Shown: piece after piece, positions 16,508 through 53,800 of the stretch | Position numbering within the stretch: the first letter of the stretch is position 1 | Layout: every line of letters begins with the position of its first letter | From: Phocaeicola sp. | GTDB lineage: Bacteria; Bacteroidota; Bacteroidia; Bacteroidales; Bacteroidaceae | Assembly (NCBI GenBank): GCA_022764505.1 | Contig: JALEQJ010000006.1 | Location: forward strand, 17,492 to 81,491 | DNA: 64,000 nt | Direction: 5' to 3' | Program-made: the position numbers and the translations under genes | Notes under the pieces: model-generated | The model's input: the letters and a program-made list of their open reading frames with translations, nothing else | Told to the model about the DNA's origin: nothing | Database searches by the model: none

Positions 16508-16573
16508 GGTTTACATATTCCGTACCACAGTTTATATAAACTTCCAGTAGAGTTTATGTAAACCGGGGTACGA
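16508..16573. repeat. Intergenic array of about 22-bp units, GTTTATATAAAC family
   Basis: Three units lie head to tail. The 12-bp elements GTTTACATATTC (16509), GTTTATATAAAC (16530) and GTTTATGTAAAC (16552) are spaced 21 and 22 bases apart and separated by variable 10-base stretches. The second is a perfect palindrome and the third nearly so. The array lies between mutS2 (ending) and the fumarase promoter. The same element with the same period recurs at 45481-45588, including a shared GTTTATATAAACTTCCA in opposite orientation. Function unknown. Confidence 0.75.
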
Positions 16574-27278: not shown

Positions 27279-27403
27279 AAGAGGAGAGAAGTCCCCTTCT
27301 TGAGATGCTTTTGAATAAAATAAATTTACGATTTACCCGGTTATGCATCATAGGGTAATCTCAGCTTGTTCTGCAAAAGCTAACGTAGATTTCTTGCTCT
27401 GTT

Positions 27404-27469
27404 TTTCCGAACATATACAGAAACTTTTCCGATCCTGCACGGATTTTTTTCCGAACGTGTATGGAATAA
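27404..27469. repeat. Three tandem 22-bp units, TTCCGAACA family (copy 1)
   Basis: Three exactly adjacent 22-base units begin at 27404, 27426 and 27448. Each starts TTTCCGA and has a downstream (A)CGGA- or GGAA-like half, so the consensus TTCCGAACAnnnACGGAA is a dyad with TTCCG and CGGAA arms. They sit in the 725-base region between the divergent tamB and menaquinone genes, on the men side of the tamB promoter. The rest of that region holds no convincing gene; its longest tiny ORF is 21 codons. The matching array is at 53712-53777, inverted. Confidence 0.8.
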
Positions 27470-27803
27470 TGTAAAGAATGCATCTTTCCACAATTATATA
27501 CTTGCAGAGCCAACTTGTTTTGTGGTGTTATCAATGCAAGAGCTTACTATAAAAAATGATAAAGGTAGTAGTGTATCGAAATATAGCGTTACTGTTTAGG
27601 TGTAATGATTAATATATTTTACAACCATTTGTCCTCAACAAGGTTTAGTAGAAATCATGTAAATACCATACATTAAAGACAGGCTAAGTCTGTATATTTT
27701 TTGTGGGAAGATAGAACATTTAGGATATATAAATTATATGGCATGGAGATCAAAGAAATGTCTTGTTTCTACAGAGAATGTGTATTACTTAGACAGAAGT
27801 CTG

Positions 27804-44271: not shown

Positions 44272-45039
44272 TTAATAAATGGAAAAATGATCTGCGTCTG
44301 CCAATACCGGAAACTTTTCTCGGAAACGCTGCAACTTATCCAAAGTCAATTCATATATAATCACACCCGGCATACTTTCTGTACATTCTCCTACAGGATT
44401 TCCGTAAAAGTCTACTATAGCAGTATGTCCTGTATAAGTACCCCATTTGTCTTTTCCTACTCTATTGACAGCCAATACATAACATTGGTTTTCTATGGCA
44501 CGTGCTTGTATAAGTTTATCCCAAACATTGATACGTCCTTCCGGCCAAGCGGCAATATAGATGGCTGCATCATAATCTCCGAGGTTGCGAGAATAAACAG
44601 GGAAACGCAAGTCATAACAGATTTGAAGTAAGAAACGTATGTTCTTGTAATTTACAATGGTGCGCTCGTTTCCTGCCGTATAACTCAGATGCTCGTTCCC
44701 ATAAGAGAATAAATGTCTTTTATTATAGGTATGTATATTTCCTTCCGGAGTAACAAAGAGCATTCTATTGTAGTAATATCCATTTTCTACGATAGGTACA
44801 CTGCCTACGATAGCAAAATTACAGAGAGAGGCTTGTTCCTTAAACCATTGAACAGTTCTTCCCTCCATACCTTCTGCTACATTTTGTGGCTCTATAGTGC
44901 AACCCGTAGTAAACATTTCCGGAAAAACGACCAATTCTACACCCTTCTCTCTTAGATTCTGTAAGGTTTGAGTAGCTGTAGATAGGTTGGTGGTAATGTC
45001 TTCCCTTTCTATATCGGATTGTATCAGTGCTATTTTCAT
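44272..45039 (-). CDS. Omega-amidase (nitrilase superfamily, YafV-like)
   Basis: This 255-residue carbon-nitrogen hydrolase has a Glu-Lys-Cys triad: [11 protein letters not shown] (about 41), [10 protein letters not shown] (about 108) and [16 protein letters not shown] (about 143). The closest functional class is omega-amidase, which hydrolyses 2-oxoglutaramate or 2-oxosuccinamate as part of metabolite repair. It is a separate family from AguB in this window (no WDQWYPE). It precedes trmD by 11 bases. Confidence 0.9.
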
Positions 45040-45170: not shown

Positions 45171-45171
45171 G

Positions 45172-45245
45172 TGACCGCGACAGGATTCAAACCTGTAACC
45201 GGCTGATCCGTAGTCAGCTACTCTATTCAGTTGAGCTACGCGGCC
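45172..45245 (-). tRNA. tRNA-Arg (anticodon ACG)
   Basis: On the minus strand the 74-nt gene folds as a cloverleaf: acceptor GGCCGCG/CGCGGTC with one G-U pair, TA at positions 8-9, D stem GCTC, anticodon stem GCTGA-CTACGGA-TCAGC with anticodon ACG (plus-strand 45209-45211), and a T arm CAGGTTTGAATCCTG. CCA is not encoded. ACG is expected to be edited to ICG by TadA to read CGU, CGC and CGA. Confidence 0.95.
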
Positions 45246-45480: not shown

Positions 45481-45588
45481 GCTTTTATAAACCGAATAGC
45501 ACTTTTTTGTAAACCCAAACACGGTTTATATAAACCACGATGGAAGTTTATATAAACTATGATACAAAATACATAAACTTCCTATATG
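45481..45588. repeat. Intergenic array of about 22-bp units, GTTTATATAAAC family (long copy)
   Basis: Five elements start at 45481, 45503, 45524, 45546 and 45567, spaced 22, 21, 22 and 21 bases: GCTTTTATAAAC, TTTTTTGTAAAC, GTTTATATAAAC, GTTTATATAAAC and AAATACATAAAC. The central two are perfect palindromes and the outer ones are degraded. The array fills part of the 515-base gap between tRNA-Arg and parC and shares sequence with 16508-16573 in inverted orientation. The remaining 45312-45480 and 45590-45727 stretches hold nothing I recognise. Confidence 0.75.
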
Positions 45589-45760: not shown

Positions 45761-48385
45761 ATGAGTTCTACAGACATAGATAAACAGCATTTCGGCGAAA
45801 TAGAAACAGGACATTCCGATTATAAACCAGTAGACAAAAATGAAAGCTCTCTAAAGTACAACTTAGGGGGAATGTATCAAAACTGGTTTTTAGATTATGC
45901 TTCTTATGTTATTTTAGAGCGTGCTGTACCACATATCAATGACGGGCTGAAACCCGTACAACGACGTATATTGCATTCTATGAAACGCTTAGACGATGGG
46001 CGTTATAATAAAGTTGCCAATATAGTAGGGCATACTATGCAGTTTCACCCTCATGGAGATGCTTCTATAGGAGATGCTTTGGTACAATTAGGACAAAAAG
46101 ACTTATTGATAGACTGTCAGGGAAACTGGGGTAACATATTAACCGGAGATGGCGCCGCCGCTCCTCGTTATATAGAAGCCCGTTTGTCAAAGCTCGCTTT
46201 GGATATTCTTTTCAACCCTAAAACTACAGAGTGGCAATCTTCTTACGATGGCAGAAATAAAGAACCCATCACACTGCCGGTTAAATTCCCTTTGCTCTTG
46301 GCACAAGGAGTAGAAGGTATTGCTGTGGGACTCTCGTCCAAAATACTTCCTCATAACTTTAATGAACTGTGCGAAGCTGCCATAGCTTATCTCAAAGAAG
46401 AAGATTTTACGCTATATCCCGATTTCCAAACAGGTGGATTGATAGATGTTTCACGTTATAATGATGGAGAAAGAGGAGGTACCGTACGTGTACGTGCTAA
46501 AATCTCCAAGATAGATCAGAAAACACTATGTATAAGCGAACTTCCTTATGGGAAAAGCACTCCCAGCTTGATAGAGTCTATACTAAAGGCTGTAGATAAA
46601 GGAAAAATTAAAGTCAAAAAAGTAGACGATAATACAGCACATTCTGTAGAAATCTTGGTGCATTTGGCACCTGGCGTATCTTCGGACAAAACGATAGATG
46701 CACTGTATGCTTTTACAGACTGCGAAATAAATATTTCTCCAAACTGTTGTGTAATAGCAGACAACAAGCCTCATTTTTTGACTGTGAGTATGGTGCTACG
46801 TCAAGCTGTAGACAACACAAAATACCTCCTCAAAAGAGAATTGGAAATAGAAAAAGATGAACTGTCAGAAAGCTTACATTTCGCATCATTGGAGAAAATA
46901 TTTATAGAAGAGCGTATTTATAAAGATAAAGGTTTTGAACAATCACCCAATATGGACGCTGCGTGTGAACATATAGACGAGAGATTGACACCTTTTTATC
47001 CACAGTTTATTCGTGAAGTAACAAAGGACGATATTCTTCGGCTGATGGAAATAAAAATGGCACGTATTCTGAAGTTCAATAAAGATAAAGCCGATGAACA
47101 AATAGCACGTTTCAAAGCACAAATTGAAGAAATAGAACACCATTTGGCACATTTGGTAGATTATACCATTAAATGGTATCAGTCTATCAAAGATAAATAC
47201 GGAAAAGCTTACCCAAGACGTACAGAAATCAGAAACTTTGATACTATCGTGGCTACAAAAGTGGTGGAAGCAAATGAAAAGTTGTATATCAATAGAGAAG
47301 AAGGCTTCATCGGCACGGGACTTAAAAAAGATGAATATGTATGCAACTGCTCTGATATAGACGATATCATCATTTTCTATAAAGATGGTAAATACAAGAT
47401 AGTGAAAGTATCTGATAAACTATTTGTGGGCAAGAACATACTCTATCTCAATGTCTTCAAGAAGCAAGATAAACGTACCATCTACAATCTCATTTATAGA
47501 GATGGGAAAGATGGAGCATATTATATGAAACGCTTCAATGTTACAGCTATGGTACGAGACAGAGAGTACGATGTAACACGTGGTACAGAAGGTTCCAAGA
47601 TCGTTTATTTCACAGCCAATCAAAATGGAGAGGCAGAAGTAATAAAAGTTTCTCTACGTCCCAATCCACGACTAAGACGCACAGAATTTGAACAAGATTT
47701 CAGCGAATTGGCTATCAAAGGACGTACTTCTATGGGGAATTTATTGACCAAAATGGCTGTACACAAAATAGCGTTAAAGCAGAAAGGAGGTTCTACATTG
47801 GGTGGTAGAAAAGTCTGGTTTGATTATGATGTACTACGTCTCAATTATGATGAAAGAGGGGAGTACTTGGGAGAGTTCCATACAGATGACCTTATTTTGG
47901 TAGTTCATAATGACGGTACTTATTACACAACTAATTTTGATATAAATAACCATTACCAATATGGAATAGCACATATAGAAAAGTTTAACCCGGCAAAAAT
48001 ATGGACTGCCATTCTTTATGATGCGGATCAAGGTAACTATCCATATCTCAAAAGATTTACTTTCGAAGCTTCTGCAAAACAACAAAGCTATATTGGAGAG
48101 AATAAGAACAACACCTTAGTTCTGCTTTCTCAAGAAAAGTATCCACGCTTCCGGATTTCTTTTTCGGAAGGAGATAGTTTTAGAGAAGCTATGGAAGTAG
48201 ATGCGGATAGCTTCGTCGCTGTGAAAAGTCTCAGAGCGAAAGGGAAAAGACTTACTACTTACGTCGTGGGAGAAATAGTAGAGATGGCTCCTACTATCAT
48301 AGCATCGCAAGATGAACCATCATTGGAGGACATTGAAGAGAAAGAAGAAAACAATGAAGACAATCCTCAATTACCTTTTGAATAA
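45761..48385 (+). CDS. parC: DNA topoisomerase IV subunit A (ParC-type)
   Basis: An 874-residue type IIA topoisomerase cleavage subunit. The N-terminal winged-helix/tower core carries YVILERAVPHINDGLKPVQR near residue 47, HPHGDASIGDALVQLGQ near 107 and the catalytic Tyr in AAAPRYIEARLS near 143. A Lys/Glu-rich coiled-coil tower spans about 380-480. The C-terminal domain (about 520-850) is a degenerate beta-pinwheel lacking a clear GyrA box (QRRGGKG), which favours ParC over GyrA. It has an acidic tail (EDIEEKEENNEDN). parE is not adjacent. The next gene starts inside its last 32 bases. Confidence 0.88.
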   Translation: MSSTDIDKQHFGEIETGHSDYKPVDKNESSLKYNLGGMYQNWFLDYASYVILERAVPHINDGLKPVQRRILHSMKRLDDGRYNKVANIVGHTMQFHPHGDASIGDALVQLGQKDLLIDCQGNWGNILTGDGAAAPRYIEARLSKLALDILFNPKTTEWQSSYDGRNKEPITLPVKFPLLLAQGVEGIAVGLSSKILPHNFNELCEAAIAYLKEEDFTLYPDFQTGGLIDVSRYNDGERGGTVRVRAKISKIDQKTLCISELPYGKSTPSLIESILKAVDKGKIKVKKVDDNTAHSVEILVHLAPGVSSDKTIDALYAFTDCEINISPNCCVIADNKPHFLTVSMVLRQAVDNTKYLLKRELEIEKDELSESLHFASLEKIFIEERIYKDKGFEQSPNMDAACEHIDERLTPFYPQFIREVTKDDILRLMEIKMARILKFNKDKADEQIARFKAQIEEIEHHLAHLVDYTIKWYQSIKDKYGKAYPRRTEIRNFDTIVATKVVEANEKLYINREEGFIGTGLKKDEYVCNCSDIDDIIIFYKDGKYKIVKVSDKLFVGKNILYLNVFKKQDKRTIYNLIYRDGKDGAYYMKRFNVTAMVRDREYDVTRGTEGSKIVYFTANQNGEAEVIKVSLRPNPRLRRTEFEQDFSELAIKGRTSMGNLLTKMAVHKIALKQKGGSTLGGRKVWFDYDVLRLNYDERGEYLGEFHTDDLILVVHNDGTYYTTNFDINNHYQYGIAHIEKFNPAKIWTAILYDADQGNYPYLKRFTFEASAKQQSYIGENKNNTLVLLSQEKYPRFRISFSEGDSFREAMEVDADSFVAVKSLRAKGKRLTTYVVGEIVEMAPTIIASQDEPSLEDIEEKEENNEDNPQLPFE

Positions 48386-53679: not shown

Positions 53680-53711
53680 GTTGAGTGCTTTCCTTCTTGT
53701 TTCTATCATTA

Positions 53712-53777
53712 TTCCGTTATTGTTCGGAAAATCTTCCGTGCTTGTTCGGAATGAATTCCGATGCTGTTCGGAAGATC
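53712..53777. repeat. Three tandem 22-bp units, TTCCGAACA family (copy 2)
   Basis: Three exactly adjacent 22-base units begin at 53712, 53734 and 53756. Each reads TTCCGnnnnTGTTCGGAA plus four bases on the plus strand, equivalent to TTCCGAACAnnnACGGAA on the minus strand. TTCCG and CGGAA arms make each unit a dyad. It lies about 35 bases upstream of the nucleotidyltransferase promoter and downstream of the lpxB terminator. Alignment with 27404-27469 includes the shared flank GGAATAATG. Confidence 0.82.
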
Positions 53778-53800
53778 TGTTGTCCTAATAAAGAGCAACA

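What the first reader, a model, noticed from the sequence alone, without database searches (positions are those of the whole stretch)
45481..45588. A different repeat family (B) with the same ~22-bp period upstream of parC
Five GTTTATATAAAC-like palindromes recur every 21-22 bp. Their sequence is unrelated to family A, yet the period is the same. Two unrelated repeat families sharing a two-turn period suggests one mechanism that makes or reads 22-bp arrays, with exchangeable core sequences. The middle units are perfect and the outer ones decayed, as expected for growth from the centre or decay from the ends.
Basis: partly seen in the sequence, partly recalled or inferred. Interest (0 to 1): 0.7.

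Follow-up and report, generated by a model that had tools for sequence, protein, structure and literature searches.

The report
Bacteroidaceae two-turn palindrome repeat arrays
Upstream of parC lies one of roughly a hundred short intergenic arrays of 22-bp palindromic units in this gut bacterium, and its relatives carry arrays with the same two-helical-turn period but quite different sequences, which points to a widespread, apparently undescribed kind of DNA repeat whose spacing is conserved while its letters are not.

Summary
The array (45481-45588) has five units spaced 22/21/22/21 bp, two of them perfect GTTTATATAAAC. The whole genome (2.14 Mb, a Phocaeicola-group genome) has 234 such cores (<=1 mismatch) against 13 for the reversed control. 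Relatives lack this core, but a blind lag scan of 2.76 Mb from many Bacteroidaceae finds palindromic arrays almost only at lags 22 (35 loci) and 21 (6), with different cores in different lineages and several families per genome.

Arrays are intergenic (1 of 54 cores inside an ORF >=150 aa), usually three full cores between dyad-symmetric ends, beside unrelated housekeeping genes. Two near-identical relatives differ at one array by exactly one interior 22-bp unit. Sister species keep an array there, and P. vulgatus lost it by deletion between 6-bp repeats.

Best reading: REP/BOX/BrickBuilt-like interspersed palindromic elements that grow and shrink by whole units, kept in two-turn phase because dimeric proteins read them as duplex DNA. 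The protein reader is inferred. RNA hairpins and MITE transposition remain rivals.

The parts
45481..45492 (.). unit 1, GCTTTTATAAAC (2 mismatches to the core)
45503..45514 (.). unit 2, TTTTTTGTAAAC (3 mismatches)
45524..45535 (.). unit 3, perfect GTTTATATAAAC
45546..45557 (.). unit 4, perfect GTTTATATAAAC
45558..45571 (.). TATGATACAAAATA, matching the terminal motif TRTGGTACGAAATA that ends family-B elements elsewhere in the genome
   Evidence: comparison with other family-B copies
45567..45578 (.). unit 5, AAATACATAAAC (4 mismatches)
16509..16563 (.). second family-B array in the window (units at 16509, 16530, 16552) between the fumarase and MutS2/Smr genes
53705..53779 (.). family-A array, TTCCG-N8-CGGAA units with a 22-bp period
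27400..27470 (.). degenerate family-A-like array, lag 22
44272..45039 (-). flanking gene, carbon-nitrogen hydrolase
45171..45245 (-). tRNA-Arg(ACG) between the hydrolase gene and the array
45761..48385 (+). flanking gene, parC-like topoisomerase IV subunit A (874 aa)

Best explanation
The array is one copy of a discrete element of about 80-110 bp that is dispersed through the intergenic DNA of this genome: usually three full 12-bp palindromic cores in 22-bp register, between dyad-symmetric ends (TCTATTTCGTAC... / ...GTACGAAATAGA). It belongs to a Bacteroidaceae-wide class of such elements, built from tandem palindromic units with a period of 21-22 bp (occasionally 23), whose core sequence is lineage-specific. 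Shown: the period, palindromes, dispersal, intergenic placement, unit-number change in a whole 22-bp step, persistence at an orthologous site with sequence turnover, and loss by deletion. Inferred: the period is held because the arrays are read as double-stranded DNA. Dimeric proteins (a nucleoid-associated or regulatory protein, or a topoisomerase as at E. coli BIMEs) would sit on one helix face every two turns. Unit number would change by slippage or unequal exchange, and the core would drift with the specificity of its reader. How whole elements reach new loci is not known; some copies ride inside a longer MITE-like element.
For: Genome-wide core excess and exclusive 22/21-bp spacing. Dyad-containing periodic loci: 35 at lag 22, 6 at lag 21, at most 1 at every other lag from 12 to 35 in 2.76 Mb. 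Markov controls give none at lags 20-24, E. coli gives 0 at lag 22 in 100 kb, and other Bacteroidales have fewer. Cores differ between lineages: B enriched only in this genome among 60; F2 86 copies in G016, 47 in G002, 0-6 elsewhere; F3 shared by G016, G073, G002 and a few others. 1 of 54 cores lies inside ORFs that cover 85% of the DNA, with no preference for convergent or divergent gaps. Three units in 17 of 23 multi-unit arrays. One interior 22-bp unit differs between two near-identical relatives, and sister species keep an array of the same family at that site. Neighbours are unrelated housekeeping genes. A period close to two helical turns, shared by unrelated cores, has no obvious reason at RNA level.
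Against: No binding protein is identified and no occupancy data exist. Several family-B copies fold much better on one strand than the other, because non-Watson-Crick pairs are mostly G-U on that strand, as RNA selection would give. Period conservation could also come from descent plus slippage without any reader. Seven of about 25 sampled B copies share 300-bp flanks, so transposition may explain part of the dispersal.
Confidence: 0.5

Rival explanations
1. MITE-like mobile elements: the arrays are inside or at the ends of non-autonomous transposons moved by an IS transposase, and the 22-bp tandem is passive cargo, as in the P. gingivalis BrickBuilt minisatellite-in-a-MITE.
For: Defined dyad-symmetric ends. 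About 300-bp (family B) and 280-bp (family F2) flanks shared by subsets of copies, with a GACACACCC-type end in family B. Dispersed copies in many intergenic sites. BrickBuilt precedent in another Bacteroidales species.
Against: Most B copies share only the array and about 20 bp on each side. No target-site duplication was recognised. The one presence/absence case is a deletion between pre-existing TTTTCA repeats, since outgroups carry the array. Cargo status does not explain why unrelated cores share one period.
Confidence: 0.25
2. RNA elements: the transcribed array folds into one long hairpin of about 100 nt that affects mRNA stability or acts as a small RNA. The repeated palindromes are a by-product of stem symmetry.
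For: Strongly negative fold z-scores on one strand (-7.35 and -6.73 against -3.90 and -2.89 on the other). G-U/A-C skew in many B copies, such as 10/2, 8/0, 1/9 and 2/13.
Against: F2 copies are balanced (5/5, 5/5, 6/7, 6/7, 7/6). The skew direction in B is not constant relative to element orientation, and copies share ancestry, so counts are not independent. Arrays lie in divergent, convergent and tandem gaps alike. No Rfam match. A two-turn period is not needed by RNA.
Confidence: 0.18
3. Neutral satellites: palindromes help slippage, so arrays arise and are homogenised with no reader at all.
For: Whole-unit copy-number change. Locally near-identical units, for example eight or more in L135.
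Against: Neutral slippage predicts many periods and broad copy numbers; instead 21-22 bp dominates and three units is the mode in G000. Hundreds of homologous cores at many loci need dispersal.
Confidence: 0.07

Closest known systems
BrickBuilt MITE of Porphyromonas gingivalis (PMC4596501)
   Same: Bacteroidales; about 23-nt tandem units; always intergenic; unit number changes by whole units between strains; 19 copies; leader and tail flanks.
   Different: BrickBuilt has IS5-type terminal inverted repeats and long leader and tail; one family in one species; palindromic units are not mentioned in the text searched. Here there are many unrelated palindromic cores across a family and most copies lack long flanks.
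REP/BIME elements and RAYT-associated palindromic repeats (PMC3733652)
   Same: Short palindromes in extragenic DNA, high copy, lineage-specific families, several families per genome, clusters of units.
   Different: REPs carry a GTAG or CGTC tag and variable spacing; GTAG types go with a Y1/HUH transposase. No Y1_Tnp gene was found in this genome. Here the period is fixed at two helical turns and the core is exchanged.
Streptococcus pneumoniae BOX elements (PMC3049150)
   Same: Modular intergenic repeat with end modules and a variable number of internal tandem modules; strong predicted hairpin.
   Different: BOX modules are not described as palindromic units in two-turn register, and no change of core under a constant period is described.
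Iterons and tandem operator arrays (from general knowledge)
   Same: About 22-bp sites repeated on one helix face for cooperative protein binding.
   Different: Those occur at one or a few loci beside their reader gene; here there are roughly a hundred loci and no adjacent reader gene was found.

Membership tests
RAYT-mobilised REP (GTAG type) | Y1/HUH REP-associated transposase in the genome | tested here: not met
   PF01797: 0 matches in G000, which is 92.8% complete
RAYT-mobilised REP (GTAG type) | GTAG or CGTC tetranucleotide beside the stem | tested here: not met
   End alignment of 48 element ends shows TCTATTYCGTAC and no conserved GTAG or CGTC tag
MITE | Terminal inverted repeats | tested here: met
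   Dyad-symmetric ends TCTATTTCGTAC / GTACGAAATAGA
MITE | Target-site duplication or a precise empty site | tested here: inconclusive
   The only presence/absence locus is flanked by TTTTCA repeats, but outgroups carry the array, so it is a deletion
MITE | An autonomous relative with the same ends | not tested
BrickBuilt | 23-nt tandem repeat with leader and tail and IS5-like TIR | tested here: not met
   Period 22, unrelated ends, no leader or tail in most copies
Structured RNA family (Rfam) | Match to a curated covariance model | tested here: not met
   Only the tRNA and a sub-threshold match over it; one array lies beside a FopS sRNA but does not overlap it
Two-turn protein-binding array | Sites phased at about two helical turns | tested here: met
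   Lags 21-22 dominate palindromic arrays; 48 of 50 listed pairs at 22 bp and two at 21 bp
Two-turn protein-binding array | A protein occupies the sites | not testable with these tools
   Needs ChIP, DAP-seq or a pull-down

The most novel reading that the evidence does not exclude
Bacteroidaceae carry a general system in which dispersed intergenic arrays of dimeric sites, phased every two helical turns, are recognised by a fast-evolving family of DNA-binding proteins, so that each lineage rewrites the core sequence of its arrays while the two-turn geometry is conserved.
Probability: 0.3. Interest if true: 0.85.

Novelty: new variant of a known kind. Interest (0 to 1): 0.62.

Why it matters
A repeat class in which period and symmetry are conserved but sequence is not would be a natural experiment in protein-DNA co-evolution, in a dominant family of gut bacteria. 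It would also add a large, apparently undescribed layer to Bacteroidaceae intergenic regions (about 20% of the larger gaps in this genome), with consequences for promoter annotation, strain typing by unit number and possibly chromosome organisation. The test is simple: find the protein.

Tried and rejected
Chance: rejected by genome-wide counts and controls. REP/RAYT: no Y1 transposase. Phage or virus origin: no family-B or F2 array pair in viral contigs. Plasmids: no similar DNA. Transcription terminators: arrays occur in divergent gaps as often as elsewhere; one terminator-like hairpin overlaps units in the window but that is expected of palindromes. A regulon: neighbours show no common function. 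FopS sRNA association: 5 FopS genes, one of them beside an array in the sampled sequence. Lineage-specific insertion in G063: at first looked like an insertion with a 6-bp duplication, reversed by outgroups. parC-specific role: arrays lie upstream of parC in about 8 of 52 genomes, close to the rate for larger gaps in G000 (19 of 92), with different cores. Literature: no description found in the open library; most subscription journals are not held.

Full report
Observation. The array upstream of parC is real: five units at 22/21/22/21-bp spacing, two of them perfect GTTTATATAAAC. The window comes from a 2.14-Mb genome of the group that includes P. vulgatus and P. barnesiae. G063 is 'probable P. 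dorei', inferred only from about 97% identity to G011. The genome has 234 cores with at most one mismatch, against 13 for the reversed control. The strict two-core pattern with any spacing from 16 to 34 bp finds 78 pairs and 0 control pairs; the 50 listed are 48 at 22 bp and two at 21 bp.

Anatomy of family B. In 440 kb of this genome, 17 of 23 multi-unit arrays have three units. Linkers are about 10 bp, often with the motif TTCCAYYRYG or its complement. Ends are dyad-symmetric, TCTATTTCGTAC...GTACGAAATAGA, and conservation stops about 20 bp outside the first core. The outer cores tend to be GTTTATGTAAAC read inwards, and the inner ones are the perfect palindrome, so 'perfect middle, decayed ends' is largely a position-specific consensus. 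One of 54 cores lies in an ORF of at least 150 aa although such ORFs cover 85% of the DNA. 19 of 92 gaps of at least 150 bp hold an array, in all gene orientations (ORFs were called mechanically). Seven copies are embedded in a longer MITE-like repeat of about 300 bp.

The wider class. A blind lag scan, independent of any core sequence, was run on this genome, 80 parC loci from Bacteroidales and long stretches of other genomes of the group. Among periodic loci with a dyad, lag 22 has 35 loci, lag 21 has 6, and no other lag from 12 to 35 has more than 1. Order-1 Markov copies of the sample give zero at lags 20-24. E. coli has 0 at lag 22 in 100 kb. Prevotellaceae, Dysgonomonadaceae and other Bacteroidales give 2 in 225 kb, against 18 in 416 kb for the Bacteroides/Phocaeicola group. 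Cores differ: CACGTTCGTG, GTTCCCTTTAAAGGGAAC, GTCACTCCAGTGAC, GTTGTACAAC, GGCTCGCGAGCC, TTTATATAAA with a 21-bp period, and others. G016 alone has at least five families. F2 (GGACTGTACAGTCC) occurs 86 times in G016, 47 in G002 and 0-6 elsewhere. F3 (CTTTTTAAAAAAGCTC) is shared by G016, G073, G002 and a few others. Family B is enriched only in the window's genome.

Evolution at one site. Probable P. dorei (G063) has an array of the AAGTAAGT/ACTTACTT family, at lag 22, that is missing from P. vulgatus. This looked like an insertion, but two further relatives, G069 and G020, carry an array of the same family at the same place, so P. vulgatus most likely lost it by deletion between TTTTCA repeats. 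G069 and G020 are nearly identical there except for exactly one interior 22-bp unit. Arrays can thus persist at a locus, change their letters and gain or lose whole units. Copies of the same roughly 92-bp element are dispersed in all four genomes.

How it may work. Shown: dispersed intergenic arrays, two-turn period, palindromic units, whole-unit turnover, lineage-specific cores. Inferred: a duplex-DNA reader. A period near two helical turns shared by unrelated palindromes is what cooperative dimers on one face of the helix need, and neither RNA hairpins nor plain slippage demand it. Flanking genes are unrelated housekeeping genes with no recurrent DNA-binding family, and the REP transposase family is absent. 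The RNA rival has some support in family B, where non-Watson-Crick pairs of the whole-element hairpin are mostly G-U on one strand and fold z-scores reach -7. F2 shows no such skew, and copies are not independent.

Comparison with known systems. The nearest described element is BrickBuilt of P. gingivalis: 23-nt tandem units inside a MITE, intergenic, with unit-number variation. REP/BIME and pneumococcal BOX are architectural analogues. None is described as a set of unrelated palindromic cores held at one period across a family. I call it a new variant of a known kind. The literature check covers only the open library.

Limits. The listing shows 50 of 78 pairs. The window's genome is a 92.8%-complete draft. 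Taxon groups were assigned by hand from record titles.

Noticed in passing
L105:9175-9243 (G000 contig C11): A FopS-family sRNA (RF04319) lies next to a family-B array; the genome has five FopS copies.
   Followed up: partly
L147:19646-19742, L161:3497-3601, L167:6109-6211 and others (G016): Two further dispersed hairpin repeats (about 97 and 140 bp) with GTGTCRAAAC ends, typical MITE anatomy, unrelated to the two-turn arrays.
   Followed up: no
L115:9309-10394: A HpaII-type restriction endonuclease gene lies beside a family-B array.
   Followed up: no
L135:4672-4870 (G027): A long array of eight or more near-identical 22-bp units (GGATACGTCCCACAACGTAGCC), an example of strong unit expansion.
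   Followed up: no
L123, L124, L126, L128, L132, L134: Relatives carry 21-bp arrays with a TTTATATAAA core like family B and ends that often read TCTATAAA, so similar cores occur with periods of 21 and 22 bp.
   Followed up: partly
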